Source of the DNA: Ariolimax columbianus
Lineage: Eukaryota; Mollusca; Gastropoda; Stylommatophora; Arionidae
NCBI GenBank assembly: GCA_036924085.1
Contig: JAVGWX010000013.1
Coordinates: 67,897,859 to 67,961,858 of the forward strand
Length of the DNA stretch: 64,000 nt
Direction: 5' to 3'
Shown: positions 20,201 through 58,235 of the stretch, one piece after another
How positions within the stretch are numbered: the stretch's first letter is position 1
Layout: the number at the start of each line of letters is the position of its first letter
Notes under the pieces: model-generated
The model's input: only the letters and a program-made list of their open reading frames with translations
Told to the model about the DNA's origin: nothing
Database searches by the model: none
Position numbers and translations under genes: made by a program

Positions 20201-23200
20201 TGGGATTCCAGAATTACAGTTATGAGGAACGGCTAAGAAAAACTGGCCTACAGTGTCTCGAAGAGAGAAGAATTCATGGTGACTTAATACAGGCTTATAA
20301 GATGATCAGAGGAATGGATAAATTAGACTATAACAAGTTTTTTAAAATACAGCCACCCACAATAACACGAGGGCATAGCTACAAGCTGACTAAAGAGAGG
20401 TCTAGATTAGATATTGGGAAATATTTTTTTAGTCAGAGACTGGTGTCTGCTTGGAATGCATTGCCAGGGGAGGTAGTGGAGGCAGGGACAGTTAATGCAT
20501 TTAAGAATAGATTGGATGCGCATAGCTTTTAGAGCAAGGTGATGTAAATGTAACTGGTTGTATACAGACTCCGCAGGGTCTTCTAAACCAGTATAAAAAC
20601 GTTAAGTTAAGTCTCTAAGACCCTTTCTGTGGAGGTGGGCCTTGAGTCTGCAATGCCCCATTCTGAGTCTGAAGATATTTTTCTGTCCATCTCTGTCTAG
20701 TTTGTTTATGCTGTGATTTTCTGGTTTGTATTCTTAGAGGGGAGTGTTAGCTCAGTTCATAGCACGCAATTCGCTATTTCTGTGGTAACAGTTTGAATCC
20801 CGCCCTGAGACTAAAAACAAAACAGTGTCGTGATTTTAATCGGCGACCGCCTCTCCAGACAACCCAGCTGTAAATTAGTACCTGACATATGAGTTAGGGA
20901 AAGTAAAAAACAGTAAGGAAGAGCACTGGCCAGCCCCATCTCTCAGTCTCCGGCTTAGTACAATGGAGTCTTCAAAGACTCCATTTCCAACCAGCGGTTA
21001 ATTCTGCTGAATTTCTACTTTACTTTTACTTAACATTAGAAATAATATAATATCTAATGATATCGTTAGAAATATTGTATTTGATAATGACATAAATATT
21101 ATTTATAATAATGACATTAGAAAAATTAATGATGATATTATAAATATGATATCCAATGAAGACATCAGAAATGTTATAACTTTTCTTCTTTGCGTTCAGG
21201 ATCTTTTGGTCATGCTATATCTGCAGGCCAGTCGCCATGATGAAGTCTGTAGTCTTCACCAGGTCGGAGCGGCTGCCCCACAGCTTTTGTCTCAGCTCCG
21301 CACCCTCTGGCCCGGTCTGGCATCTCATTTCCCTATAGATTGGGCATTCTTGTAGAATATGCTCAGAATTCTGGTATCCTGTTCCACATGAGCACTCATC
21401 GGTGTGTGAGATCTTCAGTCGGTATAGATGTTCTAGTAGTATATTATAACTAATAATGACATAAATTTTATGTCATTAGAAATATGAGAATTACTCTCTG
21501 AATACCTAGCCAGACACAAAATTAGGTCATTTGAATGTAACTTAGTCAACTACCACTGCATACATATAACAGATGTTGTTACAAGGCACAAAGAAGACCA
21601 TAACGCAGACGAATAGATGACAATTGACAAATGGACAGAACAAAGTAAGTAAGAGTGCTTCGGGCAGTGATGTTTTTCTTGTTCGTAATTGCACACTATG
21701 TTGTCTTCTTCCACAGTTCAAGCCCTTGGAACAGCTCATGGGGGTGTTCCCGGCTGCAAGTAGGAAACATCTGCCGATCACTTGGCAGACACTAATGACT
21801 GACACAGTAAGTAGGAACTAGGATTTCACCGATAAGCCAATTTCCGATTAATTGGCGGCAGATTATTTATAATGTAATTAGGTATTGTGATATTTTTAAT
21901 GTACATAATTATAATTAATTTTACAATTATTGTGAACTGCTATTGATAATAAGTAAAAAGTGGTGTAAATTATGCAACGTTAAATGTTATTCTCTGATTG
22001 TTACATACCGTCATGGCTGTGCGTTTTGCTCTATGGAGTTTTCCAAATTTCCCTGTAATCCATGGTTTTCTTTGTGCCTAGCAATAATAAATAAAAAAAC
22101 GAGAAGGGTGATTATCAAAACTGATTCATCTGTCAAAAAAGCCAATACAGATTAATTCGCAAAATAGCCGATATGACCGATTGGCTGCCGATTAATCGGT
22201 GCAACATTAGTTTGAACCATGGGATATTCTTAACCTTTTCAAGACCCCGTTAAAAATTGACGTAATTTCCTTCGCAGCTGCACTAATTGTTAGCACGTCA
22301 CATTTTGCTGTGGTTGTTGACTTTGAGAGCCTGCAACATTTTTGTTTGTCGATCTATAGATATGATTTTGTTGTGTGTAGAGACATAGATTAAAAAAGAA
22401 CTTGTTATTGTTTTTGTTGTGTGTGTGTTAGTTTCTGAGGTACAAGATGAAAGTGAACATTTATAAAAACAAAGCACAAACATTTAGACTCACAGATTAG
22501 GGAACGTCGCTCCTCAATATAATCCTTCCAAAATCACCACAAAACACTATTTATTGTTCTTATTATAATAGACATATCTTTTAATATTCACTTCAAACGT
22601 TATATAAATAAACTAAACAGATCTACCTCACAAAGATCTTCTACTACAACTTACTTCATCAACCCCAGTAATGGGTCGAGTTAACGCTGATTGAAAAAAA
22701 GAATATATTCTTTCAAAATCCACCTACATTTTAGCGGTTAATAATTGGGCAAGACGGAAGTGACGTACATGTAAAATCAAATCTGCCGCATTTTCGTAGT
22801 TTGATAAGTAAATTTGATATATTGACCACTTAGCATCAGGCAGTTCTAAAAGTCACTTTGGCCGTTACGCTGAAATTTTTTATCAGTCGGTTAAAAGCGA
22901 AAAATACGCGGAAAAGGTAAATACAGATTTCGTTCATCCATTTTGAAATGTCTTTGATGAATTTCTTGATAAATTTATTTGTCTTCAGGAGTCACCAATA
23001 ATTGATTTCTACCCTACCGACTTCAAGATTGATCTGAATGGCAAGAAGTTTGCCTGGCAAGGTTAGTTGAGTGTCCATAATTTGTCTGATTTTATCATCT
23101 GGCTTGGCTTGGCTTGGCTTGTCGTTCTCCATCCCCACTACCAAATCCTGAAAGGGCTTAAGTATCAGAATGTAGTCCAGAGAACGGAATGCGTTGTCGT

Positions 23201-26200
23201 AGTTTACAGCTTGACTGCGATATTTGCACCTTTCGGTCCAACACATCCGACTTCCAGCAAGCATTTTTTGAGTACCGGGTTAGCATTCTTTTTTCGATCC
23301 CTTCTCCTTAGCCAGTTTGCCCTGCTGCAGCCTGTTATCCAGGATCACCTGGTGGAGGTGTAGAAGGGTCTTGGCAGCTCTGGTTTGCTGGCCCTGACGC
23401 TAGCAGTCAGCTATGGGTCGCTCCCACTGCAGCTCATGCGCTGCTCAGCATCTTGATCCAATTTTATCATCTAAATATACAAATATATACTAGTCTTAGT
23501 TGACTTGTACTTCTACAGGGGCAGATGCCTCTGTGCAGGTCCCAGCTCTGGTTTGCTGGCCCTGACGCTAGCAGTCAGCTATGGGTCGCTCCCACTGCAG
23601 CTCATGCGCTGCTCAGCATCTTGATCCAATTTTATCATCTGAATATACAAATATATACTAGTCTTAGTTGACTTGTACTTCTACAGGGGCAGATGCCTCT
23701 GTGCAGGTCCCAGCTCTGGTTTGCTGGCCCTGACGCTAGCAGTCAGCTATGGGTCGCTCCCACTGCAGCTCATGCGCTGCTCAGCATCTTGATCCCATTT
23801 TATCATCTAAATATATACTAGTCTTAGTTGACCTGTACTTCTACAGTGGCAGATGCCTCTGTGCAGGCCCCAGCTCTGGCGTGAACTGTATGTAGCCTGA
23901 AGGAGGATATTCTGCTTAGTGGGTTAGTCTCAAGCAGCTTATCACTATTCTACATTTGTACAAGTGCAGCGGAGGTTGGTTAACTGATGTGCGAATCCAT
24001 CTTAATAGACTCAGACAATAGAGCATGCGTACGAAGAAGAAGAAGAAGACAATAGAGCAAAGTAGACAAACCGCCTAACTATGGCCATTGTTATTCCATG
24101 TCATACAGTTAGTCTGCTCTCTGTGGGGCAGTGGTGCTATCCTTTTCCTTGTCATACACAAAGACCCCAGTGGACCACTCGAGACATATTCTATACTTAT
24201 TATCCTATTATTCAATTGAATGTAATGAATTATAACGAAAAGACTTGATGATCTGACTGTGACTGATGATTTGGCGCTTCTGTTTGACAACCACAACCAA
24301 ATAAAATAGTCTGAAATTGAGTCTGAGGGTGGACAGAGATAAAACACAGATTAGCACTGAAATTGAGTCTGAGGGTGGACAGAGATAAAACACAGATTAG
24401 CAAAATAAAAGCAACTAACGACAATCAGATTGTTCTGGTACAGTATGATGTACGAAGAGTCAAAACGGCTTATCAAAGCCAGATACATGACCAAATGGGA
24501 AACCGAACATACTGGTTACACCAAAAACGATGCCTATTACCAGTTGAACCGAAGAGAGCAGGTCGTTGTCTTCAGACTTCGCACTGGCCAAAATAGACTG
24601 AGGTACCACCTATTCAATAAATTGAAGATAGGGTGTACCGACGAATGCCCGTGCGGTACTGGTAAAATGACCGCTGAACATCTGCTGCAGAACTGCCCGA
24701 CATACGAGGATCAGAGAGAGCAGATGTGGCCATTACCAGTGGAACTGCAAGACAAGCTCTATGGCAGTGGCGAGAGCCTCAGGATGTAGCCGCTATTTTC
24801 GAAAAAATAATGGTTACTGTCTGACTGCGTACGCAGAAGAAGATTGTTCTGGTACACAAAAAAACTATGCCTATTACCAGTTGAACAGAAGAGAGCAGGT
24901 CGTGGTCTTCAGACTTCGCTCTGGCCACAATAGACTGAGGTACCACCTATTCAACAAATTGAAGATAGGTGGCACGGACGAATGCCCGTGTGGTACCGGG
25001 AAAATGACCGCTGAACATCTGCTGCAAAACTGCCCGACATACGAGGACCAGAGAAAGCAGATATGGCCATCACCAGTGGCAACACTAGACAAGCTCTATG
25101 GCAGTGTCGACAGCCTCAGGATGACCGCTGCTTTTTTCGAAAAAATAATGGTTGCTGTCTGACTGCATACGATGAAGAAGAAGAAGATTGTTCTGGGAGA
25201 CATGATATTGCAAGAGATAAATTCATTCATATATCTGTGTAGTAATAGAGACGAGGTCGGAGGTGCTGATAGAGATATCAAATTTAGAGTGGAAAAAGTG
25301 AGAGTGGCTTTTATTGCCTTAGGGAATTTGTGAAAATCTAAAGAAATTAAGTCCATCACAAAAATACAGATCTTCAACTCCAATGTCAAGTCCGTCCTAT
25401 TGTATGGCTCTGCGACGTTGGAAACATGGGAAGCACAATTAAAACGGTCCAAGTTTTCATTGACGAATGCTTGGGTCGAAGTGAGGGAATAAAATGCTAT
25501 GATAAAGTTGCTAATATAGAACTGGGGGAAATAACCGGACAGGGGGGTGGGGCATGGAAATAATGGTTCCATGCTTCGCAGGGAGCTAAAGTGTTTTTAT
25601 TGATTGATTAGTCCTATCACAATTTTTCTATATATACTCCATTTTGATCATGATTTATCACATGACCAAATAGGAACAGCCCACATATTAAGCCAACATA
25701 TGTCCTCTCCTAGATTCAAATTATCAATCACATATACACTAGCATAAAGAAAGACCCAGTGGTCTCAAGGTAAGGTGTTCGCCTCAGGTGCTGGAGGTCG
25801 CGGGTTCAAATCCTGGTGCAGACATCGGGATTTTCTCACGTGGATTATCCGGTAAATATTTCCCCTGATCTCTGAGTAGTGAGATCAGACACCCGTGTGC
25901 AGTGGCACGCATGTTAAAAATACCTTAGCAGTTGGAAATCGAAAAGAGTATGCCTAACGGTCGCTGCTCGGGCAAAATTCAAGTTAAAAATCTACTCAAA
26001 TTATTCTAGGGATTTTCACCACGCGGAGAATATGTCGCAAAACAGCGGGACTGTATGGCCAGAATAACAATTCTTGGCTATGTGGTTGGTGGAGTGGATT
26101 AGATGGCGCCTGACAGGCTGTGGGTCTACTTTGCTCTAATTTACGCTTCCACCTCCACCAGTTTCAAAAATAGGCAATCGTATATTCCAGGGGCTAACAA

Positions 26201-29200: not shown

Positions 29201-32200
29201 CAATTCTTTGCCAATTGGGTACTTAGCACTAGCACACGGAGACAAATCTCCATAGAAAGCTGATTGGAAGCCTTGAAGAATTCTCCACTACTGCATCCGA
29301 TAGGGAAAATAGGGGACTGTGTGGGCTGGTGGTTAGGGGACAAGGTTCACAAACTGAAGGCGCTGGGTTCGCTCTCCAATCACAGCACTGACCGTGGTCG
29401 GGGAAGCAAACGCTTAGAAAATGCAGGAGGAAGCAGACCCTTACATAAAATGCATGCCGAAGCTGGATGCACTGAGCTGACAGGCGCAAAATGAAAACAT
29501 AGTGCAACGCATACCGCCTCGGGGAACAGAGACACAAGCCAAACCCCCTAAAAATAAAAGAAAACAGGACTCGCGGGTGGACATAATTTTAAAAAACGTG
29601 GCGAAGGAGAACACGGTTAAAAACGGTCTAACAACATCTTTATACTGGTTTAGAAGACTCGTCAGAGTCTGTATACAATCAGTTACATTTGCATTACTCT
29701 GCTCTAAAGGCTATGCGTATCCAATTGATTCTTAACCCACTAATGTCCACAAAGGTGGACAAGTAAAAATAAACGGACACGCGATAAGAAAATTTGCCAA
29801 TCGCTGTCAAAAAATAATACTAGAGCATTGCCGTGTGTAAACACCGGTTGAAATATGGATATTTTGAATCTAAATATAGGGATGCCGTCATTGCAGATGT
29901 AAACAACCAAAATGGCAGAATAGTTAGTTTGAAAACGATTTTGAAACGATGTGTTTTCTTTTTCGGGACGACTTGCGGATTATTCCATTATTGAGGATGA
30001 TAAAGGTAAGTTGTTGCGACATTTTTGGGAGCTCGATCTGTTTAATTTGTATATTTAGCAGTATTAACTACATTTGTAAGGGAAAATAGCAGATTTGACG
30101 ATCTTGTAAGAAACACTATCGGCATTCTGTGACGATTTTCACATTCCGACGGTCTCGATTACCCGCGAAATGGGAAAAATTGAAATGTTGCGGTTGCAAA
30201 CAATTTTTCACATTCATCTTCTTGTCTCTCATAAACTAACACACACACATTAAAAACAATAACACCAAGTAGTTCTTTATTCATTTATGTCTCTACACAT
30301 AAACAAATCATATTTATACAACAAACAAAAAAAATACAGATTCTCAAAGTGAACAACCTAGAAAAACCTAAAGGTTAAATGCATTAACTGTCCCTGCCTC
30401 CACTACCTCCTGGTGCAATGCATTCAAGCATTCACCACTCTCTGACTGAACAAATATTTCCTTATATCCAATCTGGACCTTTCTTTAGTAATTTGTAGCT
30501 ATGCTCTCTTGTTTTCATTGGTGGTTGTATTTTGAAAAACTTGTTATAGTCTAATTTAACCTTTCCTTTGATTCTCTCATAAACCTGTATTAAATCACCT
30601 CGAATTCTTCTCTTTTCTAGAAAAGTGTAGGCCGGTTCTTCTGAGTCTTCCCTCACCTACAGTGTTTCATCATTGTGCATTTTGGAGTGTCCACTTTTGC
30701 GCTATTATTATTACTTAATATTGTTGTTTTGATGAAAGTTTAAATTATTTCTCACACCAGTGGTCGACATCTAAATCCTGTAATCAATGAAGCTAGTTTT
30801 GTATAAAGATGGTAATTGAATCTGTGTTCCAATCTTGCCAGGTTAGTAATGGCTAAGTCTATTACATTTTTCCATCTACAGGTAGGAGAAACACAAAGGG
30901 AAATGACAGGCTTTTCATTGGAATCCACCACCCAGCATATGAGTTCATGGAAGGATTGTTCGAAGGACAGAAAGCTATAAAAGTAAGTGGAGAAAGCTAC
31001 ATCAGAAGAAACTGGCATGGCAGACATGTGTGCTTCATTACTTGTTTTGACTTTTGTTGTTTATTCTTGTTTGTTTGGACTGCCCTTTGTCACTGATGAA
31101 GACCTTTTTGGTCATACTTATTTACTTTCTGTGTCCTAGACATTATGTCACACTTCATTCTTCCAGTATTCAGCCACCTGGATTGCACTGGCACTCAGCA
31201 GGTCATCCATGCTACAAGTCTCCGGGAGGTTTGGGCAGACCATCAGATGGCCCTGGTCTTGTGTTACTCCACATTCGCATGTTTCATCATCTCTGTATCC
31301 CCATCTTTTCAGGTTTTTCCTGTATTGTCATACACCATTTCAAAGTCTTATTTAATGACTTCCATGTTGCGTAGGGCAGGATATATCTAGGCGCAGATTC
31401 CTTCGATAACTCAATCAAGGGGACCTATGTCTGCTGTTTCCAACTTTCGTTGCCTCGATTTCCTGAAATAGTCTGTAGGGGCTGGGTTGACTGTAAGAAA
31501 CTTCGTTTTGAATTTAGTCTTTTTATACATACTACAACAGCTGCTACACTGAGTGACAGCAAACTATACTATTGTTTGCGATAAGAGATTGTATACTTTT
31601 ATTAAGACAGTTTATCACATTTGATCATTTCAGCCCATTCCAATGGACACAAAGCTAACACAAGGAATGGCAGGAGACGTTTGGTGTGATGAATACAATA
31701 TACCGAAAGATGGGTGAGTAGTAGCTATTTTTAAAGGGTTTGTCAAGAGAAGAGCTCCCTCTACCAATGTAGTTATTTGTAAAGGGTTTGTCAAGAGAAG
31801 AGCTCCCTCTACCAATGTAGTTATTTGTAAAAGGTTTGTCAAGAGACAAGCTCCCTCTACCAATGTAGTTATTTGTAAAGGGTTTGTCAAGAGAAGAGCT
31901 CCCTCTACCAATGTAGTTATTTGTAAAAGGTTTGCCAAGAGAAGAGCTCCCTCTACCAATGTAGTTATTTGTGAAGGGTTTGTCAAGAGAAGAGCTCCCT
32001 CTACCAATGTAGTTATTTGTAAAGGGTTTGTCAAGAGACGAGCTCCCTCTACCAATGTAGTTATTTGTAAAGGGTTTGTCAAGAGACGAGCTCCCTCTAC
32101 CAATGTAGTTATTTGTAAGGTAGAAGATTAAGGGCAACAACTGCCGTCGGGGATGAAGATAGCTCTTCATGTACTAAGCTGTAGCCTATGTGAGGTAGGG

Positions 32201-35200: not shown

Positions 35201-38200
35201 TGTCGGTTACAGTATCGTATGTTAGATTACAAATGGCTTTTGAACAGTTTTAATTTTGTATACGCCGTTTGGAGCAAGCCGACTTTTTCCGAAAGGTGAA
35301 GTAAGTTGTTGGGAACGATCTTTATCGAGTAGATCTGTTTATTTTGTTTGTTTAAATGAAAGAACTACGTTTGAATTGGAAACTAACAGTTGTGTTGATA
35401 TTGTAAACACAGTATCGATACGTTGTTGTGGTATCCATGGTTTTCTATCGGAGCGACTAGGCCTAGTGGTAGAGTCCAAATTTTTTCTAAGATTTTAATA
35501 AATTTTCAACTTTTCTATCTTTTTGTATCTCAGAAACTAACAAACACACAACCAAAATAATAACACCCACATGTTCGTTATTCAATTGTGTCTACACACA
35601 AGAAAATCATATTTATTGACAAACAAACAGAAAAGTTACTAATTTTGAAAGTCGACTACCATAGGGAGAAATTCAGAAATTAATTAGGTCAAATTCTCGC
35701 AATTGAAAAAAGGCGGAGTGTTAAAGGTTAAATTAATTTGTACACCTATTTTGTCCACAGAGTCGTGCCAACACCATTGCCAGGCGTACCAGATATACAT
35801 AACAACAAATGCATTACGTAAGTTTGTTATTTTCTTTTCCTTGTTGAGCATTTTACAGTGCCGCCTCAAAACCTGTATGAACACGATCCAACCAGAACAT
35901 AATCCAGAGTGCTGGCTGTGCACGTATCCCTATGAAACTGTTGAACATCATCTTTTTGAATGTTCGGTGCTTGCCGGTGTTAGAAAAGAGCTTCTTCCTC
36001 CGAGGCCAGACAAGTGGAACACTTTGTACGGAACTAAACAACAGCTTACAAACACTTGCAGATACCACTATATGGCATTGGGCCAAAGGGCAGGAGCTAC
36101 TGGATCAATAATCAACCAACCATATGCTATATTATGTGAACGTCAGTGCTTCTATGTATCTTTTATTGAATCGACAAAATTCAAATTTATTTAAAGAAAA
36201 GAGAAAAAGGTGGCTGCATAACATTCTGGGGAGCAAGAATCGTCAAACAGGGGAAAGTTTTTTGGGGGGATTATGCATAAGTGGGGATTTTTTTCTTTCT
36301 TTCTTTTCGCTTGTTGTCCTGCTTGTGCCTTTCAGTGTCAGGTTATGAAGAGGTTTCTTGACCGGGCCCTGATATATGGTTCGTACATGGGGATCTTTTC
36401 ATCTAATGCTGGTATTCAAACAGGTATTATATTGTCTGTTGCCAGGTAATGTAGTAGGTATTTTAAACTTCCTGTAGTTTACCATGTCTGGGGGGGGGGG
36501 GGGGGGGGGGGGGGTCAGATAGTGTCTGGTTAGGCACAATGTACTGATCAGACATGATAGTGTGGGGACGGCGTGGGCTAGTGGCTAAGTGACACAGCTC
36601 ACATTCTGAAGGTGCTGGGTTTGATCCCCCATCACAGCTCTGGCTGTTACCCCGTGGATACAAACTCTTAGAAAATGCAGGAAGAAGCAGACCCTTACAT
36701 AAAATGCATGCTGAAGTCAGATGCACTGGGCCGACAGGTGCAAAATAAAAACATAGTGCAACATGTTAGTTTAGGTCAGGCAAAATCTACTGGCCAAGAC
36801 CCTCACCGTGGCTTTCTCGTAGCCCTCTCTGGAAATGGGTAGTTTTCAAGGCAGCCTGGCTAATGAAGTGAGAGGTCGACTTAATCCCCGTAGTAGTGAG
36901 TGACGTGTAAATGAAGCCAATCATGGCACAACCGCCTGGAGTACCCCAGTCCACCTTCATCAGCACGCTCAGGATGTGAGGAAAGCTGCTGCAACCCGCC
37001 ACTTAATGTCCTTGACAACAGCTTGTTTCCAGGACGACCAACGACAAGGTCAGGCGAGGGTCTTGACCAGTATATTTCTCCTGACCTTGGTTAACCTTTA
37101 GCACGCTGCAAATTTTGAAATTTTTTTCCTCCAAGTACGGAGACCCTACCGACAGCCATTTTTATACTGCTGGATTCGTCACGCCAATCTACACACGCTT
37201 TTTGTCGGTAAAAGTATCGTATGTTAGATTACAAATGGCTTTTGAACGATTTATTATTTTTTTTCGCGGTTGGAGCAGGCCGACTTTTTGGGGAAAGGTG
37301 AAGTAGGTTGTTGGGAAAGATCTTTATCTTGTAAATTTGTTTATTTTATTTGTTTAGATGAAAGAACTACGCTTGAATTGAAAACTAACAGTTGTGTCGA
37401 TATTGTAAACACAGTATCGATTCTTTGTTATGGTTTCCATGGTTTTCAATCGGAGAGACTAGGCCTAGCCGGGAAAGTTCAAATATTTAAATTTTTTCAA
37501 AACATTTCACATTCATCTTCGTGTATCTCAGAAACTAACAAACACACAACAACAACAATAACATCAACAAGTTCTTTATTCAATTGTGTCTCTAAACACA
37601 AGAAAATCATATTTATTGACCAACAAACAGATCAGTTACAATTTTTGAAAGTTGCAAAATTGAGAAATGTGAAAAATTTTCAAAAATTCAGTGTGGCGTG
37701 CTAAAGGTTAACATTGTCTGATCAGTGTGTTTTGTCTAACCAAACGTTAGCCTCATCGTCCTTGCCTTTGTAATGTAACTTGTTAATATGGTTGCTAAGA
37801 ATGTCAAGAGTGTCCTGCATGTGCCATCACGGTGCAGATGAACAACATGACGTCATAACTGCAGATGGCCGCACCATTATTGTGATTGGCCAAAAAGGAG
37901 CAGCATTCTGTTATCCATTTTTTTGTTGAGTAACGAAGGGGTGAAACCTGTGGAAATTCATCAGCTAATGAAGGTCTAATATGGTGATGCATGCTATTAA
38001 CTCTCGGTCAATCTGCAATTTTTCCTTACAAGACGTTCAACGGCTGCAATCTTCTCTGGGGCACTACTTGGTGTGTCTGACCAGGTCTTGGACAGTCACA
38101 GAACTCTTGCTGTTCTGGCATTTCCTACTCCACTCATACACTGTTTGAAGTGAAAGGCATGCATCATGCTCCAATGGAATCCCTCATACTGTGGAATCAC

Positions 38201-41200
38201 AGAAAACGAGAGAACAGATGCTCTAGCAAAAGTAAAAAGGCATAGTCATCGAGTACCATACAGAGAGATCAAGAACATCATCAGAAATCAGTATATAAAC
38301 CAATGGAGACAAGAACATAAGCAGTAGACCAGACCCAATTCACCAACTCAAAAGAAACCAACAAACTACCTTATTTCACCTGAGAACTGGTCACTGCAGA
38401 TTACTAGAACATCTATACCGACTAAAGATCTCACACATCGATGAGTGCCTATGTGGAACAGGGGGCCAGAATCCTGAACACAATCTACAGGAATGACTGG
38501 AATAGCAAAAACCCTAACCAGCGCTACAGGCCTCAGCTTGGGTTCCAGCCAAACAGTGGTTACCGTGACAACAAGAATGCATCATCAGCCATCCAAATGA
38601 TAAGGTAAGCCTTTGATCACAACATTTGATCGCATTAGCCTTCTGGGATAAACTGCTATTTTTAGTATCAATGTGATCCCGGCAGTAGTGATCAAGCATC
38701 ACACAGATAAAGCCAAGCATAGCACAACTGCCTTGTGGACTGACCCTGGTTCACCTTCATCAGCTCGAGATATGAAGAGAGCTACTGCAACCCTTCACCT
38801 AACACCTTTTTGAGGTTCACTCAAGAGATTAAAGTTATTCATTATGTGCATTCAACAACAACATACATGTAGATATATAATTATATTGTTCGGCAGCGCA
38901 TGAGCTACAGTGGTCAGTGACCCATAGCTGACTGCTAGCGTCAAGGCCAGCGAACCAGAGCTGCCAAGACCCTTTTACACCTCCATGCGGTGATTCCTAG
39001 ATAACCGGCTGCAGCAGGGCAGACTGGCTAAGGAGAAGGGATCGAAGAGGGAATGCTAACCCGGTACTAAAAAAATGCTTGCTGAAGTCGGATGTGTTGG
39101 ACCGAAAGATGCAAATATCGCAGGCAAGAGGGCCAGAATCCTGGACACAATCTACAGGAATGTCCATCCTACAGGGAAATGGGATACCGGACCTGGCCAG
39201 AAGTTGCGGAGCTGAGAAAAAGACTGTGGGACATCTGCTCCAACCTTGTGAAGACTATAGCCTTCATCAGAGTGACTGGCTGCAGATAGAGCATGATAAC
39301 AAAATCCTGAACACAAAGAAGGAGAAGATAGTGACTAGAAAGTATGTACTGTCTGATGACCAAAATCCTAGCATATCTATGAGGTGTGTTCAAATTAAAC
39401 TAGACCTAACTGCACCAAGTGAATATATGTACGATGCGCATGACGACGTTACTTCTTGTGTAAACATACCAGCCATCAAGTTTGGAAAACTTCATTATCC
39501 TCATAGTTTCCTCAGCAGACCATTAAAAACATGGTGGGGGTTATATGGAATCCATCCAGAGTTGATCAGCGAGCGGTGATTCGGCTTCTAACAGCTGAAG
39601 GATATCGACCAGTTGACATGAATGGCAGTGTATGGTGACAAAAGTGTGTCGAAGACAACAGTGAAGAATTGGACAATGAGGTTTAAAGAAGGATGTGAGT
39701 GAACGCAACAATAGGCCCCTGACCTGGTCTCGGAAGATCTTTCGTTAAATCACGTTCTTTAAACATCGTTGTCCAGTTCTTCGTTGTTGTCTTCGACACA
39801 CTATTGTCGTTATACACTGCCTGCTTTCCACAATAAATATCAACTGATTGACATCCTTCAGCTGTTAGAACCGATTCGCCACTCGCTGATCAACTCTGGT
39901 CGGATTCCGTATCATCCCTGCTACGTTTTCAACAGTCTACTGATAAAACTATGAGTCGGAGGACAATTAAATTTTGCAAGATTGACAGTTCCTATGTGCT
40001 GTTTAGACCAGAAGTGATGTCATCATTTCATCGTATGTATGTTCACTTGTTGCAGTTTGGTCCGGTTTCATTTGAACACGCCTCGTACTTTAAAAAAAGG
40101 TAATAAAGTGACACCAATCATTCAGCACAGAAAATGGGCTGTTTACACACACCGAAATATTAATGGCTCGGGTTCAATTTCTTAATACATTATCCCAGAC
40201 GATCTGTTTGTGGCATAACCAAAACTATTTATTTAATGCCTTCCTCAGGGTCTGCTACCAGGATCTGGTATTTGACCAAGATTACCTGTTCAAAGCTGTT
40301 GTTTTACCTGGAGCTGTGTAAGTACTGCAAATGTCATGTCAGTTAGTAGTACCTGCTTTCAAATGTCAATTTGAGGCCGAAGATGCAGTAGTGACTGAGC
40401 TGACATCAGCCAGCGACTTAAAGCTAACCAAGACACCATTTCGCCTCAACGTGGCGGCCGTGGAAACAGAAATAATTATGGATAAATATAAAAGTCTTAT
40501 GGGAACACTTAAGGAAAAAAAGTTTAGAAAGGTCACAATGATGGGCACTTAAGGAAAAAAAGTTTAGAAAGGTCACAATGATGGGCATTTTAGATAGAGC
40601 AGATGGGTCAGACTATCTAGATAGCAAAATAATATGTATCAACCTTAGGTTACAGCGGATGTGTGTGGACATGGGAATGGAATTTATTGATGTTAAAGTA
40701 GACAAAAGTAAAATGTTAGATAGGGGAGCATGTTGTAGCAAAGTATATGTTTAATCATTGTGTTAGAAATTTAAACTAGTAAGGCCTATGAAGTATGAGA
40801 CTAAAGATAGGCCTACAATAGGGTGCTATAGAGGATGTAGTCAAAGGGGTGAGTTGGGGTCAGGAAAGTGTGAAATAAATAGTGGAAAAGCAAACACTAA
40901 AATGATAAAGCACAAGCAAAAAGAGGAAAACCAACAACATTACAAACTAAAATGTTTTTATGCAAATGTGAGAAGCATAGTAAATAAAAGAGGAGAATTG
41001 GAACTGTATGTAGAGGAAGAAAAACTAGATATAATAGGATTAACAGAATCATGGACATATGAGGAGATTGCAGATAGTTAACTTGAAATAGAGGGATATA
41101 CAATGTTAAGGAAAAATAAGATAGTTGGAGACAAGACTAAGGGAGGTGGCGTTTTATTATACTGTATAAATTCTGTTAATATAACGATCAAAGATTTTTT

Positions 41201-44200
41201 ATCATGTTATAACAAAAATGAAAGTGAATGGGGAGAAATAGAAAGTGGGGGTAAAAAAACAGTGATTGGATTATGCTATAGATGTCCATCAAGTCAAAAA
41301 GAGGAAGATGAGGAGCTGATTAGTAGCACAGCAAAGGCAAGTGAAGGGAAATTATTATTAATGGGAGATTTCAACTTTCCAGAAATAAAATGGGATATGG
41401 CAGAAGCACTTGTAGAGTCAAAACCTTTTGTTAAGTGCATAACTGACAATTTTTTAATTCAACATGTAGAAGCAGCCACCAGAGGCAAAAACATACTCGA
41501 CCTAGTTTTTACTACAGAGGAAAATATGATTGAAAATGTAACCGTTGGGGAACTGTTTGGCTCAAGTGACCATCAAATCATCCGTTGGGATCTTATTGCA
41601 GGGAAAGAAGTAAACATAAACACGCGAACATACGACTACTCTAAGACAGATGTTAAGAGGATGAAAGAGGCAGCGAACCACATAATCTGGAAAGATATTG
41701 TCGTAGGAACAGATGTTGAACAGGAGTGGGAAAGTTTTAAAACAGTTCTAGAAACGCTAAAAGAGGAATGTGTTCCATGTAGGGAGGTAAACCCCAAGCG
41801 TAAAAAGTGGATAACTAGATTTGTAGTGAAATTTAGAAGAGCGAAAAATAAAGCATGGAAAAAATATATAGAGGCAGGTAAATCAAAAGAAACATATGTA
41901 AAATATTTGGACAAGCAGAACATATCTCAGAAAGCGAATAAAACAGCAAAAATAGACTTTAAAAAAAAACTTGCTCAGAGGATCAAGACTGATAGTAAAA
42001 GCTCTTCTCTTATGTTAGAAATAAACAAAGAACGAAAGACAATGTAGGCCCTCTCATAGACAGCACAGGAAAAAAAACAAGTGAGAATAGGGAGGCAGTA
42101 CTTTGGCACAGTCTACACAAAAGAGGACTGCTCCAAGATCCCAGAGCCAATAGATATTTTTCAAAGAGACATGGATACAGCGGGATTAAGATCAATCTGT
42201 ATTACAGAGGAAATGGTTTTTAAAAAATTGGAGGGGTTGAAAGTGAATAAATGTCCAGGTCAAGATGGTATTCATCCAAAATTGATGTATGAAATTAGAG
42301 ACCAACTAGCAAAACCATTGGCTATATTATGTTCTCAATCACTTACAAAAGGGATTGTTCCATGGGATTGGAAAGATGCAGGAGTGATCCCCTTATTCAA
42401 AAAAGGCAAAAAATCAGATCCAGCAAATTATAGACCGGTGAGTTTAACGAGCATAGTCTGTAAATTGTTAGAGTCAATAATCAAAGAAAACATTGTAATG
42501 CATTTAGACAAATTTAATCTAATTAGAAATAGTCAGCATGGGTTTACTAGAGGGAGATCATGCTTAACAAATCTATTAGAATTCATGGAGGAGGTTACTA
42601 AAATCATAGATAAAGGGGAGCCAGTGGACGTTATTTATCTAGACTTTACAAAGGCCTTTGATAGAGTACCTCATCAAAGATTATTTCGAAAGTTAAAATC
42701 ACATGGAATAGGTGGGGAAGTTGCCAAATGGATTGAAAATTGGTTAACGGGAAGAAGGTAGAGGGTGGGCATAAATAAGGAGTACTCTGAGTGGTGTGAA
42801 GTGAAAAGTGGTGTGCCACAGGGCTCGGTTTTGGGACCAATTTTGTTCTTGATATATATAAATGATTTGGACATTGATATGGGATCCATGATTGAAAAAT
42901 TGGCTGATGACATAAAACCATGCAGTAGTGTCTCATCTAAAGCGGAAGTGGATATATTGATGTCGGATTTAGATAAAATTCGAGAATGGTCTGTAAGCTG
43001 GCAAATGTAGTTTAATGTAGATAAATGTACAGTCATCCACATGGGTAGATCCAATATGGAACATAATTACAGAATGGGAGAAAACAATATTAGAAAGATA
43101 GATAAGGAAAGGGACCTAGGGGTTATAATAGATCATACAGGAAGGGTGAGTGAGCAAGTTAAGGTAGCAGTGAAAAAGGCAAATGCAATGTTAGCTATGA
43201 TAAAAAGAAATATTAAACATAGGAGCAAGGAAGTGATCGTCAAACTGTATAAAGCTTTAGTTAGACCTAGATTGGACTACTGTGTACAGGTGTGGAGTCC
43301 TTATCATAGAGGGGATATAAACATGCTAGAAAGAATACAAAAAAGAGCGACAAAGATGATAGTGGGATTCCAGAATTACAGTTATGAGGAACGACTCAGA
43401 AAAACCGGCCTACAATGTCTCGAAGAGAGAAGAATTCGTGGTGACTTAATACAGGTTTATAAGATGATCAGAGGAATGGATAAATTAGACTATAACAAGT
43501 TTTTTAAAATACAGCCACCCACAATAACACGAGGGCATAGCTACAAGCTAACTAAAGAAAGGTCCAGATTAGATATTAGGAAATATTTTTTTAGTCAGAG
43601 AGTGGTGTCTGCTTGGAATGCATTGCCAGGGGAGGTAGTGGAGGCAGGGACAGTTAATGCATTTAAGAATAAACTGGATGCGCATAGCTTTTAGAGCAAG
43701 GTGATGTAAATGTAACTGGTTGTATACAGACTCTGCAGGGTCTTCTAAGCCAGTATAAAAACGTTAAGTTAAGTTTTAGTCTGAGTAAGAGAATATGGAT
43801 CAAAGAGAGAAGTCAGACTTGGTACCAAAAATGCTCTGCTGAAATCGGATGTATTGGCCCACAAGGCGCAGATATTGCAGCCTCGCTGTAAACTATGATG
43901 CAACATGCCTTTAGCCCCCACATATCAATTTGAATATATGTAAAAAGAACTCCCCAGCCTAGTTTTAATTTGTGCCTCCATCCACTGACCTTGTCCAAGT
44001 TTTGTGCAGGAGAAGTCCATATGTGCTTACTTTGATCCTCATATGATCCATCAACATCTCCATGGAACAGGACAGTGACCAACATAAGACATGGTGGACC
44101 CCCTCAAGACATGGTGGACCCCTTCAAGACATGGTGGACCCCTTCAAGACATGGTGGACCCCTTCAAGACATGGTGGACCACCTCAAGACATGGTGGACC

Positions 44201-47200
44201 CCCTCAAGACATGGTGGACCCCTTCAAGACATGTTGGGCCTCTTCAAGACATGATGGACCACTTCAAGACATGTTGGACCCTTCAAGACATGGTGGACCC
44301 CTTCAAGACATGGTAGACTCTTCAAGACATATTGGGCCTCTTCAAGACATGTTGGGCCCCTTCAAGACATGGTGGGCCCCTTCAAGACATGGTGGACCCC
44401 TTCAAGACATGGTGGACTCTTCAAGACATGTTGGGCCTCTTCAAGACATGGTGGACTCTTCAAGACATATTGGACCCTTCAAGACATGTTGGGCCTTTTC
44501 TAGACATGTTGAGCCCCTTTAAGACATGATGGACCACTTAAAGACATGTTGGACCCCTTGGAGACATGTTTAACCCCATCAAGACAAGTTGGACCCCTTC
44601 AAGTCATGGATTTGTCATATCCTCATCAATGCACTGCCACGTCAGGCATGAGCAAAACAAATGTTATATATTTCTTGGACCTCTCTATCTATTATGTATT
44701 TGATTTCTTTTTTTATAATTGTAAGTACAAGGAAACCAATTTACAGCACTGTATGAGTGCGTTTATAGCAGGGAGTAAAGTTTCAAGCGACACCAGTCCT
44801 CAAGGGAGGTCGGATCGTCTGCCTAGTTATATCAAAAATTCTAAGCTTTATATCAAAAAACTACCCAAGCATGGACTGGACCCATGCATACACCGACGAT
44901 TCTGTAACAAACACTACACAGAACGGAGGAGCAGGAGCATTCCTGAACCTACCAAATGGCAGAAAAATAACACTGTCATTCGCTACTGGTAAGTACACAA
45001 GCAATTTCAGAGCGGAGGCAGAGGCACTGAGGGCGGCAGTGGAAGAAATGGTGACACATAAAGAATATGAAAGCCATATAGTCCTTCTTACAGATGCTCT
45101 CGCCTTAGTCACAGCGCTAAAAAGCCAGAAAAACACTGAGCTTAATGACTTAAGAGCAGCACTCTGTCAACTGTGCCAGCAGTCCGCACCAAAAAGGGTA
45201 GTGGTACAGTGGGTTCCATCTCACTGCAACATCCAAGGCAACGAGGAAGCAGACAGACTGGCAAAAGAAGGTGCAAGACTACCACAACCAGATACTAGTA
45301 TGACATACGAAGAGTCAAAACGGCTTATTAGAGCTAGATACATGACCGAATGGGAAACCGAACATACTGGCTACACAAAAAACGATGCCTATTACCATTT
45401 GAACAGAAGAGAGCAGGTCGTGGTCTTCAGACTTCGCACTGGCCACAATAGACTGAGGTACCACCTATTCAACAAATTGAAGATAGGTGGCACTGACGAA
45501 TGCCCGTGTGGTACCGGGAAAATGACCGCTGAGCATTTGCTGCAAAACTGTCTGACATACGAGGACCAGAGAGAGCAGATGTGGCCATCACCAGTGGCAA
45601 CACTAGACAAGCTCTATGGCAGTGTCGACAGCCTCAGGATGACCGCTGCTTTTTTCGAAAAAATAAAGGTTGACGTCTGACTGCGTACGATGAAGAAGAC
45701 GAAGTTAGGGGACGGCGTGACATAGTGGTTAAGTGACACGGCTCACAAGCCGAAGGTGCTGCGTTCGCTCCCCATCACAGCACCGGCCATTACCCTGGGG
45801 AAGCAAACCCTTACATAAAATGCATGCAGATGTCAGATGCACTGGGCCGACAGGCGCAACGCACACTGCCTTGGGAAATAGAGAAGAAAGGCGAACGCAA
45901 AAAAATAAAAATAGAAAAAAATAAAGACCTTAGTTAATTAGCAAAAATATCAAATATCTCTATCCTGTTGCTGCAATGAACAACCAATTACAAGGCAGGT
46001 CTTTATTCTGGAACCCCCAGTTAAAAACAAAATCACACCTGGAGAAGAGAGCTTGAAACAGACATTAACCCATTATAGCTTGTGTCAAACTAAACCGGCC
46101 GACGAGAAGACGTCCAGTTCCACTCGATCCAGCCAACATCGACGTTGTCCTTTAATTTGAGGAACTTGACATTTAGACATTATCTACATGTTACATGTTA
46201 ATGACATTTCAAGCTTCATATTATATATTTTTGTAACTATTACTTCAGGGAGCCGCGTGGTTAGCGTGCTAGCTTTGCATCTGAGTGGTCGTAGGTTCAT
46301 TCCCCAGTTGAGGACGTAATGTTTTTTCAGACCGCAATGGCCCCCAGGTCGACCCAGCCTTAAATGGGTACCGGTTTAGTCCGGGAAGTAAGTAAAAGTG
46401 GCGAAGGAGAGGAGATGGCTACCGCCCTCATATAGCTGAGCCTTTGAAATGTGAGATCGCTAACACCTCACACCCCTACGACAGTAATGCTATGGTTACT
46501 TTACTTTACTTAGCTATTACTTCATCATGCCATAGATAGTTTCATTATGTGCCTTAAAACCCGTAGATCACAATTTTAGCTCAATTTGTGTAATGTAAAT
46601 TAATATTATTTGAAGAAGAACAAAAAATTTGTTATACAGGGTTGCGGCACTTGACCCGGAATAAAAGAGAGAAATAAAAAAAAAGGGTCTTGAAAGGGTT
46701 AACCTTTTACTATACCTGTATTCTGCATAATTTACCAGACACAAAAAATTACATCTTATTTCCTGTATCTGCATAATTTACCAGACATAAAAATTACATC
46801 TTATTTCCTGTATCTGCATAATTTACCAGATACAAAAATTACGTCTTATTTCGTGTATCTGCGTAATTTACCAGACACAAAAATTACGTCTTATTTCCTG
46901 TATCTGCATAATTTACCAGACATAAAAATTACATCTTATTTCCTGTATCTGCATAATTTACCAGATACAAAAATTACGTCTTATTTCGTGTATCTGCGTA
47001 ATTTACCAGACACAAAAATTACGTCTTATTTCCTGTATCTACATAATTTACCAGATACAAATATTACGTCTTATTTCCTGTATCTGCATAATTTACCAGA
47101 TAGAAAAATTTCGTCATGGCCCGATGTGGTTGTTGATTTTGAGAACCTTATTTTTTTGTATGTGTGCATTTAGAGACATATTAATGAAGAACTTATTGGT

Positions 47201-50200
47201 GTTATTGTGTGTATGTTAGTTTCTGAGATACAAGAAGATGAAGGTGATAGTGGTGAAAATAGCACAAACATGTAGACTCACCCATTAGCGATATTCTTTG
47301 GTTAGCTGGTTAGAAAAAAAAGAAAATAATTGCAAAAAACGTACTATTTACTACAATCGATGTTTACCATAAGGGCGAAGTCTGTTACTTCAACTATAAA
47401 TGTAATTATTGTATCTACATAGACAAACTAAACAGATCTACCTCATAAAAATCTATTTCAGAAACTTAACTCCCACATTCTCAATAATTCTCTTCAAATC
47501 CAAGCGAAAAACAATAAAATCCATTCCAAAAATTTAAACAAATTTCTAAATCACTATTATTTTCGTCTGGGATCATAGCTAGCATCAGGGCCAGCGAACC
47601 AGAGCTGCCAAGACCCTTCTACACCTCCACGCGGTGATCCTGGATAACAGGCTGCAGCAGGGCAAACTGGCTAAGGAGTAGGGATCGAAGAGGGAATGCT
47701 AACCCGGTACTCAAAAAATGCTTGCTGAAGTCGGATGTGTTGGACTGAAAGGTGCAGCAGGGCAGACTAGCTAAGGAGAAGGGATCGAAGAGGGAATGCT
47801 AACCCGGTACTCAAAAAATGCTTGCTGAAGTCGGATGTGTTGGACTGAAAGGTGCAAATATCACAGTCAAGCTGTAAACTACGACACAACGCATTCCATT
47901 CTCTGGACTACATTCTGCTACTTAAGCCCTTTCAGGGTTTGATAGCGGGAGATTGAGAACGAACGAAGCCAAGCCATTTTCATCTAACTGTATATGACGA
48001 ACGAAGCAGAAGGAAGAAAAAAAGAAGCAGTATGTTCAGCCATTTCTATGGCATTAACCGGGCATTTTAAATACGATAAAGCGATGACCCTAGTGCTGGC
48101 GCAGAATTTCGACTACGGTACGGAACAAATGGGTTGCAATTTCACAACGCTCATTTGGTAAAGGTTAACAGAGATAAGCAAAACATAGAGAGAATGGAAT
48201 AACTCTAAACCAAGAGTTACCTATATTTGTTGAAGATATGGATTCTACAGGGAGCTGGAATGTTTTTATGGTGATGGTATATGAGCATTCAGTTTTGGTA
48301 TTATTATTATTTCAGAATGCCTGCCCCTACTCTCAAACCTGGCGATTGGAATAGCAAAAACCCTAACCAGCGCTACAGACCTCAGCTTGGGTTCCAGCCA
48401 AACAGTGGTTACCGTGACAACAAGAATGCATCATCAGCCATCCAAATGATAAGGTAAGCCTTTGATCACATTTGATCGCATTAGCCTTCTGGGATAAACT
48501 GCTATTTTTAGTATCAATGTGATCCCGGCAGTAGTGATCAAGCATCACACAGATGAAGCCAAGCATAGCACAACTGCCTTGTGGACTGACCCTGGTTCAC
48601 CTTCATCATCTCGAGATATGAGGAAAGCTACTGCAACCCTTCACCTAACACCTTTTTGACGGGCACTCAAGAGATTAAAGTTATTCATCATGTGCATTCA
48701 ACAACAACATACATGTAGATATATATTATATTGTTCGGCAGCGCATGAGCTACAGTGGTCAGCGACCCATAGCTGACTGCTAGCGTTAAGGCCAGCGAAC
48801 CAGAGCTGCCAAGACCCTTCTACACCTCCATGCGGTGATCCTAGATAACTGGCTGCAGCAGGGGAGACTGGCTAAGGAGAGGGGATCGAAGAGGGAATGT
48901 TAACCCGGCACTAAAAAAAAAAATGCTTGCTGAAGTCGGGGATGTGTTGGACCGAAAGGTGCAAATGTCGCATGCAAGCTGTAATCTACGACACAACGCA
49001 TTCCATTCTCTGGACTGTTCTGCTACTTAAGCCCTTTCAGGGTTTGGTAGTGGGAGATTGAGAACGAATGAAGCCAAGCCGTATTATATTTTTCTATCTG
49101 TATTTATCCTCTGTCGTTGCCACCGTTTCGGTTGTTGTTAATGTCGCTCCGCTCGTACTTGAGTTTCTTCTTCTTTGTTCATTCTCAAACTCCTGTTACC
49201 AAACCCTGATAAGTGCTTTGCAAGCAGCAGGATGTAGTCTGGAAAATTTAATACATTGTATCACGAGTGTATTCCTTTTGGATGTTCCAAACGCCACTCG
49301 TATTTGAGTTAAGCATGTAAGGGCTGTTTTCTGCATCTGTGTCCTCGCTGAACTCACCGATACCAATATATATATTTTCTATGTTAGCTTTTTTCAATTT
49401 TTCTAACACAGTGTGTCATTCTAGTGAATTAGTGCATTTTGTCTTAGCCTTTAACGCACCATATTAAAAATTGAACACAACTTTATTGAGCATGTGACGT
49501 TTTACTGTGGTTGTTGACTTTGAGATCCTGTATACGTTTTGTTTGTTGATCTATAGATATGATTTTGTTGTGTGTAGAGACATACAAAAATAAAGAACTT
49601 GTTTTTGATGTGTGTAAGTTTCTGAGACACAAGAAGATGACAGTGAAAATATATATATATAAAAAAAAAAGCACAAACGTTTGGAGTCACCGATTCAGAA
49701 ACATCGCTCGTCAATGAATCCATTGAATTCACAACAAAGTATATATAATACTCTTACCTAATATCAACACAACTGTTAGTTTACACCAAAAACGTATTTT
49801 ATTTAATTTAGATAAAGAAACTAAACAGATCTGCCGTTCCGAGTGGTCCCTCCCCCGGAGTCTTTGTGTATGACAAGGACAAGAATAGCACCACTGCTGG
49901 ATAGAGAGCATGTTGTAAGAGCTGACTAACTTTGTGACACAGCATAACACCGGCGATGGTTAGGTGGTATGTTTAGAGCAGCATAGATGGCACCTAACAG
50001 GCTGTGGGTCTACTTTACTCTAGTGTTTGAGTCTATTAAGATGGATGTGCACATCGGTTAAACACTGCAGGACTTGTCCCAGCTCAGCAAAGTAATAAGC
50101 TGCTCGAGCCTATCCCGCTAATCAGGAAATCCTCCTCTCGGCTACATCCAGATCCTTCCAGAGCAGTGACCTGCACAAGGGCATCTGCCCCTGTAGAAGT

Positions 50201-53997: not shown

Positions 53998-55600
53998 ACC
54001 TATTCTGGCGGGGATATTATTGGGGATATAGTGTGGTGTAAGGAGGGGATGTGATATAGTGTGGTGTAAGGAGTGGGTGATATAGTGTGGTGTAAGGAGT
54101 GGGTGATATAGTGTGGTGTAAGGAGTGGGTGATATAATGTGGTGTAAGGAGGGGATGTGATATAGTGTGGTGTAAGGAGGGGATGTGAAATAGGGTGGTG
54201 TAAGGATTGGGTGATATAGTGTGGTGTAAGGAGTGGGTGATATAGTGTGGTGTAAGGAGTGGGTGATATAGTGTGGTGTAAGGAGGGGATGTGATATAGT
54301 GTGGTGTAAGGAGGGGATGTGATATAGTGTGGTGTAAGAAGGGGATGTGATATAGTGTGGTGTAAGGAGGGGATGTGATATAGTGTGGTGTAAGGAGGGG
54401 ATGTGATATAGTGTGGTGTAAGGAGGGGATGTGATATAGTGTGGTGTAAGGAGTGGGTGATATAGTGTGGTGTAAGGAGGGGATGTGATATAGTGTGGTG
54501 TAAGGAGGGGATGTGATATAGTGTGGTGTAAGGAGTGGGTGATATAGTGTGGTGTAAGGAGTGGGTGATATAGTGTGGTGTAAGGAGGGGATGTGATATA
54601 GTGTGGTGTAAGGAGGGGATGTGATATAGTGTGGTGTAAGGAGTGGGTGATATAGTGTGGTGTAAGGAGGGGATGTGATATAGTGTGGTGTAAGGAGTGG
54701 GTGATATAGTGTGGTGTAAGGAGGGGATGTGATATAGTGTGGTGTAAGGAGTGGGTGATATAGTGTGGTGTAAGGAGGGGATGTGATATAGTGTGGTGTA
54801 AGGAGGGGATGTGATATAGTGTGGTGTAAGGAGGGGATGTGATATAGTGTGGTGTAAGGAGGGGATGTGATATAGTGTGGTGTAAGGAGGTGATGATATA
54901 GTGTGGTGTAAGGAGGGGATGTGATATAGTGTGGTGTAAGGAGGTGATGATATAGTGTGGTGTAAGGAGGGGATGTGATATAGTGTGGTGTAAGGAGGGG
55001 ATGTGATATAGTGTGGTGTAAGGAGGTGATGTAATAGTGTGGTGTAAGGAGGGGATGTGATATAGTGTGGTGTAAGGAGGGGATGTGATATAGTGTGGTG
55101 TAAGGAGTGGGTGATATAGTGTGGTGTAAGGAGGGGATGTGATATAGTGTGGTGTAAGGAGTGGGTGATATAGTGTGGTGTAAGGAGGGGATGTGATATA
55201 GTGTGGTGTAAGGAGGGGATGTGATATAGTGTGGTGTAAGGAGGGGATGTGATATAGTGTGGTGTAAGGAGGGGATGTGATATAGTGTGGTGTAAGGAGG
55301 TGATGATATAGTGTGGTGTAAGGAGGGGATGTGATATAGTGTGGTGTAAGGAGGTGATGATATAGTGTGGTGTAAGGAGGGGATGTGATATAGTGTGGTG
55401 TAAGGAGGGGATGTGATATAGTGTGGTGTAAGGAGGTGATGTAATAGTGTGGTGTAAGGAGGGGATGTGATATAGTGTGGTGTAAGGAGGGGATGTGATA
55501 TAGTGTGGTGTAAGGAGGGGATGATATAGTGTGGTGTAAGGAGGGGATATGATATAGTGTGGTGTAAGGAGTGGAGGTGATATAGTGTGGTGTAAATCTC
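53998..55600. repeat. 26/28 bp minisatellite, about 60 copies
   Basis: Two unit types, gatatagtgtggtgtaagga + ggggatgt (28) and + gtgggt (26). A rare variant gtgatgtaatagtgtgg occurs at about 55026 and 55436, and the pattern between repeats with a 410 bp step: a higher-order duplication. Strongly strand-asymmetric (purine-rich + strand). No stops on the - strand gives a 537-codon artefact frame. Confidence 0.97.
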
Positions 55601-55614
55601 TCCTAGTTCTCAAA

Positions 55615-57910: not shown

Positions 57911-58235
57911 CCCTAACGTATTCCCCATTGTACACCACCACATCCCCCTCCCCCGCCCTGACCGTCTATCCCAGAGCTATTCAGCCTGGTCGCCGCCGCC
58001 CACTAATGCCAGATTGTAGCTTTCATGTGGGCGGTACAAGAATAATTACAAGCTGTATTAAAAACGCAACCTGAGGAAACTATCGCAGAAAACCAGCAAA
58101 TCATCAGAATTGCAAATTTTGAGAGCTATTTTTGTCCGTGGGGCCATACGGTTGTGAAACGGACAGTTTTCCAAACGTCGAGTCATTCGAGTCGAAATGT
58201 TATACAAAAGTCCTCTGACTACCGTGAACCGAAAA
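57911..58235. other. Unassigned DNA
   Basis: No recognised repeat or exon. Confidence 0.45.

What the first reader, a model, noticed from the sequence alone, without database searches (positions are those of the whole stretch)
38463..39162. A piece of XRN2 copied 10 kb upstream into a retrotransposon, between 33 bp direct repeats
38498-39127 matches 48346-48974 (second half of exon Q plus ~510 bp of intron) at roughly 95% by eye. It interrupts the Cys-His coding region of an RNase H-type non-LTR fragment. The bases at the left border (38463-38495) are repeated at the right border (39130-39162) with one difference. A 33 bp target duplication is long for a transposon and the insert has no poly-A or transposon ends. 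This looks like repair of a widely staggered break using an intrachromosomal template, or an unusual transduction.
Basis: seen in the sequence. Interest (0 to 1): 0.85.

Follow-up and report, generated by a model that had tools for sequence, protein, structure and literature searches.

The report
Break-repair copy of XRN2 exon piece
A stretch of the XRN2 gene was copied about 10,000 letters upstream into an old jumping-gene remnant inside the same gene, most likely while a staggered DNA break was being repaired; it is a clear, well-preserved example of a kind of repair scar that is already known.

Summary
Window 38495-39128 matches 48344-48978 at 608/640 aligned columns (95.0%), between direct repeats of 33 nt (32/33). 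The repeat is a true target duplication: 28 of 29 genomic paralogs of the interrupted LINE, and one in the window, read through the site with a single copy. In the 2.29-Gb assembly the XRN2 part was found only at these two places among 40 matches scored, so nothing suggests a mobile family.

Of 19 SINE copies examined, 14 carry 9-14 nt duplications; the insert has 33 nt and no tail. That argues against LINE transposition or transduction and for templated repair of a staggered break, or a double template switch. This is the "repair-mediated duplication" of Pace et al. (PMC2671141), with a duplication longer than their 4-21 nt. Ordinary kind, well-dissected case.

The parts
38463..38495 (+). left copy of the 33-nt target duplication (36 nt if 38460-38462 are counted)
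   Evidence: 32/33 to 39130-39162; single copy in 28 of 29 genomic paralogs and in 21438-21177
38496..39128 (+). inserted copy of XRN2 sequence
   Evidence: 95.0% to 48344-48978 over 640 columns, base 38495 being shared with the repeat
38496..38604 (+). copied distal part of the XRN2 exon, open in frame, ending at an intact splice donor (GTAAGC)
38605..38892 (+). copied XRN2 intron; 38667-38863 belongs to an old dispersed repeat (75-79% to other loci)
38893..39128 (+). copied front part of the SINE that sits in the donor intron; stops inside the SINE
   Evidence: the donor and five other window copies continue past this border
39130..39162 (+). right copy of the target duplication
   Evidence: shares with the left copy an A that 3 of 29 paralogs have
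38163..38495 (+). left part of the interrupted RNase H-type LINE fragment (acceptor)
   Evidence: tblastn with a neighbouring LINE protein; genomic paralogs
39130..39330 (+). right part of the same LINE fragment, to about its 3' end
   Evidence: genomic paralogs mostly match to query base 198-215 of 39120-39380
48344..48978 (+). donor segment
48316..48453 (+). XRN2 exon that supplied the exon part (AG upstream, GTAAGC downstream)
48738..49080 (+). SINE copy in the donor intron, with its own TATTATATT flanking repeat
31634..31713 (+). XRN2 exon upstream of the insert
40249..40317 (+). XRN2 exon downstream of the insert (phase 2 at both ends)
21177..21438 (-). uninterrupted paralog of the acceptor LINE fragment (empty-site reference)

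Best explanation
A repair-mediated duplication. A break with ends staggered by about 33 nt (two nicks on opposite strands) opened in a LINE fragment within an XRN2 intron. One end copied about 630 bp from the same gene 9.85 kb downstream, starting mid-exon and stopping inside a SINE. The new strand was joined back at 1-2 nt of microhomology, and fill-in of the two overhangs left the 33-nt repeat on each side. Shown: donor, acceptor, single-copy empty sites (in paralogs), target duplication, lack of tail, only two places among the scored genome matches. Inferred: the break, its stagger, and DNA (rather than unspliced RNA) as the template.
For: Copy and donor are 95% alike, collinear, in the same orientation and the same gene. 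Empty-site paralogs carry one copy of the repeat: 28 of 29 loci tested genome-wide (the other, L065, starts inside the repeat and cannot tell) and one in the window. Both repeat copies share a variant found in 3 of 29 paralogs. The insert borders are not element ends: the left is inside an exon, the right inside a SINE, 102 nt before its end. Microhomology is 1 nt (G) at the left; at the right 2 nt (AG) followed by one unmatched A (read by eye). The XRN2 part occurs at 2 of the 40 scored genome matches, the other 38 hitting only query bases 169-393. SINE copies have exact flanking repeats of 9-14 nt in 14 of 19 loci, with (AAG)n-type or AAGCC-type 3' ends. Pace 2009 describes the same product class in vertebrates: insertions in TEs, no polyA in any of 39 inspected proximal cases, target duplications in 6 of those 39.
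Against: Pace's target duplications are 4-21 nt and the Daphnia staggered-break repeats 4-12 bp (passages); 33 nt is longer than both. The distance (9.85 kb) and length (634 nt) lie just outside Pace's proximal class (under 5 kb, at most 619 nt); among the 29 donors on other chromosomes that they inspected, 17 had polyA/T tracts, and of the 12 without a tract 7 had target duplications, so tail-less copies with duplications also occur outside the proximal class, by an unsettled route. Microhomology of 1-2 nt is not beyond chance. No orthologous empty site in a related species could be looked at.
Confidence: 0.68

Rival explanations
1. Double template switch during replication (FoSTeS/MMBIR type): the fork left the template after 38495, copied 48344-48978, and came back 33 nt behind its departure point, so the repeat was copied twice with no staggered double-strand break.
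For: Same sequence product; same strand and orientation; 1- and 2-nt microhomologies at the switch points. Model recalled; one literature search for it listed one paper, not read.
Against: Nothing here separates it from the break model; it needs two switches and a return close to the departure point.
Confidence: 0.18
2. Target-primed reverse transcription: the local LINE machinery inserted a piece of unspliced XRN2 RNA, the repeat being its target-site duplication.
For: A target duplication is present; the donor contains a SINE of a family that shows such duplications; LINE pieces with endonuclease, RT and RNase H domains lie in the next intron.
Against: No tail; both insert ends are internal, the right one 102 nt short of the SINE's 3' end; 33 nt against 9-14 nt in 14 of 19 SINE copies and about 8 nt in the one LINE copy looked at (by eye). 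Four of the 19 SINE copies showed no clear repeat and one an imperfect one, so the family's range is not fully known.
Confidence: 0.1
3. A cDNA of XRN2 pre-mRNA used as a patch at a break (class 2 templated insertion, RNA-derived).
For: Donor and acceptor lie in one transcription unit and the insert is in sense; such RNA-derived patches are described in human (PMC5110952, passages).
Against: The insert keeps intron; DNA templating explains it with fewer steps; class 2 insertions are said to lack target duplications.
Confidence: 0.03
4. Assembly artefact or chimeric join.
For: None found; but no reads were available.
Against: Copies differ by 21 substitutions and 5 gap events; of the 11 substitutions in the SINE part 7 are placed on the donor side, 3 on the insert side and 1 is a third state, so both have aged; no N.
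Confidence: 0.01

Closest known systems
Repair-mediated duplications (RDs), Pace et al. 2009, PMC2671141 (abstract, Results parts 1 and 2 of 3, and found passages seen)
   Same: A unique piece of nearby DNA, in a few cases partial exon/intron, inserted into an old transposable element, with microhomology, no polyA, and in some cases a target duplication; ascribed there to synthesis-dependent strand annealing.
   Different: A probable gastropod rather than a vertebrate; duplication 33 nt instead of 4-21; donor 9.85 kb away instead of under 5 kb; 634 nt instead of at most 619.
Patch-mediated break repair in rice (Vaughn and Bennetzen 2014; paper not held; known here only through citations in PMC8355091 and PMC5730883 and one section of PMC7407515)
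   Same: Duplications and ectopic-donor insertions ascribed to offset nicks followed by end joining.
   Different: Inserts there are summarised as coming from within 200 bp of the break, or as short duplications from ectopic donors.
Staggered-break insertions that founded introns in Daphnia, PMC4202315 (passages)
   Same: Insertion flanked by a direct repeat, read as a repaired staggered break.
   Different: Repeats 4-12 bp, sources mostly unknown, and the site is an exon.
Templated sequence insertions, class 1 and class 2, PMC5110952 (passages)
   Same: Copied genomic piece at an unrelated site.
   Different: Class 1 has a tail and an L1 site; class 2 has no target duplication. This one has a duplication and no tail.

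Membership tests
Repair-mediated duplication (Pace 2009) | insertion of 50 bp or more interrupting a TE, with continuous TE on both sides | tested here: met
[quoted passage not shown]
   XRN2 part at 2 of 40 scored matches (of 4,335 first-look candidates), insert and donor; the SINE and old-repeat parts are naturally repeated
Repair-mediated duplication (Pace 2009) | break-repair marks (microhomology, filler, deletion) and no polyA/T tract | tested here: met
   1- and 2-nt microhomology, one unmatched base, no tail; microhomology this short is weak evidence (theirs is 2-9 nt)
Repair-mediated duplication (Pace 2009) | donor within 5 kb (their proximal class) | tested here: not met
   9,849 bp between donor and insert starts; called an ad-hoc cutoff in that paper
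Repair-mediated duplication (Pace 2009) | orthologous empty site in relatives | not testable with these tools
   no relatives held for this genome; paralogous empty sites used instead
LINE-mediated retrotransposition or transduction | 3' tail or element 3' end at one border | tested here: not met
LINE-mediated retrotransposition or transduction | target duplication of the length usual for the genome's elements | tested here: not met
   33 nt against 9-14 nt in 14 of 19 SINE copies; 1 imperfect, 4 without a clear repeat
Helitron or other DNA-transposon capture of a gene piece | element ends shared by other copies; no long target duplication | tested here: not met
   no other place with the XRN2 part among the scored matches; 33-nt duplication; Helitron end rules recalled, not from a call

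The most novel reading that the evidence does not exclude
The copy could act as a new alternative exon. The left duplication holds ...CTACAG|G, and from there to the copied splice donor runs a 114-nt open stretch (38491-38604) with phase 2 at both ends, like the neighbouring exons. If spliced in, it would repeat 36 residues of XRN2 in frame after one new one. Its upstream side has no clear pyrimidine tract, and one XRN2 exon between 31.7 and 48.3 kb was not located, so the phase of the intron that holds the insert is not certain. No expression data were available.
Probability: 0.04. Interest if true: 0.5.

Novelty: new member of a known kind. Interest (0 to 1): 0.25.

Why it matters
It is a clean case outside vertebrates, in a probable gastropod, where the pre-insertion state can be read from 28 genomic paralogs, and its duplication is longer than the 4-21 nt and 4-12 bp given in the two comparable surveys seen here. 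It shows how a working exon end with its splice donor can be moved into another intron of the same gene without transposition. One case does not change the picture of how genomes change.

Tried and rejected
Considered that the right border might be a transposon end because 236 nt of the insert recur across the genome: rejected, since the donor and five other window copies run on past that border. A wider alignment agrees for the plus-strand rows shown, but its output was cut and its four minus-strand rows (L004, L005, L006, L008) were left unturned and do not count. Considered a mobile family carrying the XRN2 piece: rejected. Considered a pre-existing tandem repeat in the LINE: rejected on paralogs, not on the orthologous site. 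Rfam (gathering thresholds) and tRNA scans of the window found nothing. A search of the exon against solved structures found nothing at E up to 10. A pattern search for one missing XRN2 exon found nothing. ORF lists and joined ORF strings were not used further.

Survey for like scars: scanning 74 of 78 held loci (4 window pieces left out) gave 3 direct-repeat pairs of 20-22 nt and none longer, within limits of 20-70 nt and 3 kb; the one in L004 lies in SINE sequence, the other two were not looked into. These loci were chosen by repeat content, so this is no genome-wide rate.

Full report
What is there. Window 38495-39128 and 48344-48978 align over 640 columns with 608 identities (95.0%), 21 substitutions (15 transitions, 6 transversions) and 11 gap columns in 5 events. 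The copy is bounded by 38463-38495 and 39130-39162, 32 of 33 identical, or 34 of 36 if the three bases to the left are included. In 5 simulated first-order Markov sequences of window length the same scan found no direct repeat of 18 nt or more.

Where it is. Exons with AG and GT at their borders lie at 31634-31713, 40249-40317 and 48316-48453; one exon between the first and third was not found. The insert therefore lies in an intron of the gene it was copied from, in sense, 9,849 bp upstream of its donor. The acceptor is an RNase H-type LINE fragment. A neighbouring LINE protein (44769-45677) matched 144 proteins, 120 listed; the best are from records without an organism name (54% identity), and those that bear one are Littorina, Elysia and Batillaria. 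So the organism is probably a gastropod; that is inference. The assembly is 2.29 Gb in 401 contigs, the window at C13:67897859-67961858.

The repeat is a target duplication. A LINE paralog at 21438-21177 reads through the site with one copy. Of 29 other genomic paralogs (the first 30 of 40 listed, minus the window itself), 28 cross the site with one copy; L065 begins inside it and is uninformative. Both flanking copies carry an A where 25 of 29 paralogs have T, 1 has C and 3 have A, which fits one origin. The sequence is well conserved in the family (closest paralogs 35/36 to the left copy, 34/36 to the right, as close as the two copies are to each other), so identity alone would not prove it.

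The insert is not a transposon. Its left border is inside an exon. Its right 236 nt belong to a SINE with many genomic copies (40 scored of 1,399 candidates), but the donor and five other window copies run past the border, and the donor's SINE ends 102 nt further on, flanked by its own TATTATATT repeat. In the genome the first 168 nt of the searched piece (38496-38892) matched only the insert and the donor among 40 scored places (4,335 candidates); the other 38 match only the old repeat part, at 75-79%. Of 19 SINE loci examined (the plus-strand ones of the 40 listed, window excluded), 14 have exact flanking repeats of 9-14 nt, 1 an imperfect one, and 4 none found; their 3' ends are of (AAG)n or AAGCC type. 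A 33-nt duplication without tail does not look like that machinery's work.

Age. Using 28 distinct SINE copies as outgroup, of 11 substitutions in the SINE part 7 fall on the donor branch, 3 on the insert branch and 1 is a third state. Both copies have aged, and the event is younger than the donor's SINE insertion. No clock was available.

Mechanism. The junctions show 1 nt (G) of microhomology on the left; on the right 2 nt (AG) plus an unmatched A (read by eye). A staggered break repaired by copying from a nearby template, with fill-in of 33-nt overhangs, explains all of it; a double template switch explains it as well, and sequence alone cannot choose. Tandem duplications at Cas9-nickase breaks with overhangs are experimentally supported (PMC8355091 and PMC5730883, passages).

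Comparison. Pace et al. (PMC2671141; abstract, Results parts 1 and 2 of 3, and passages) found 824 proximal duplications in TEs in human, up to 619 bp and under 5 kb from the donor; 6 of 39 inspected proximal ones had target duplications and none had polyA/T; of 29 inspected with donors on other chromosomes 17 had polyA/T, and 7 of the 12 others had target duplications. Target duplications overall were 4-21 nt; 4 donors were partial exon/intron. The present case is of that kind, slightly outside its ranges. Daphnia new introns show 4-12 bp repeats (PMC4202315, passages). I know of no report of such an event in a mollusc, but only one search named molluscs (8 of 740 papers listed, titles and abstract starts seen); searches were on the mechanism, and most subscription papers are not held.

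Verdict. Real and correctly described; ordinary in kind, longer than usual in its duplication.

Noticed in passing
window 41082-45677: LINE pieces with endonuclease (PF14529, 41082-42047), reverse transcriptase (PF00078, 42060-42761) and RNase H (PF00075, 44769-45677) domains lie in the XRN2 intron between the insert's downstream exon and the donor exon.
   Followed up: partly
window 39378-40087: A stretch that matches its own reverse complement at about 73%, immediately right of the LINE fragment; it looks like a mariner-type fold-back (label recalled).
   Followed up: no
window 24523-25181: A duplication at 337-bp spacing inside another RNase H-type LINE fragment (about 92% over its longest piece).
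   Followed up: no
window 23375-23879: A 168-bp unit repeated about three times, made of the front of the SINE plus its flank.
   Followed up: no
window 54025-57915: Two long neighbouring minisatellites with 28-bp and 25-bp units.
   Followed up: no
window 38491-38604: Open 114-nt stretch with phase 2 at both ends and an intact splice donor, a possible pseudo-exon of XRN2.
   Followed up: partly
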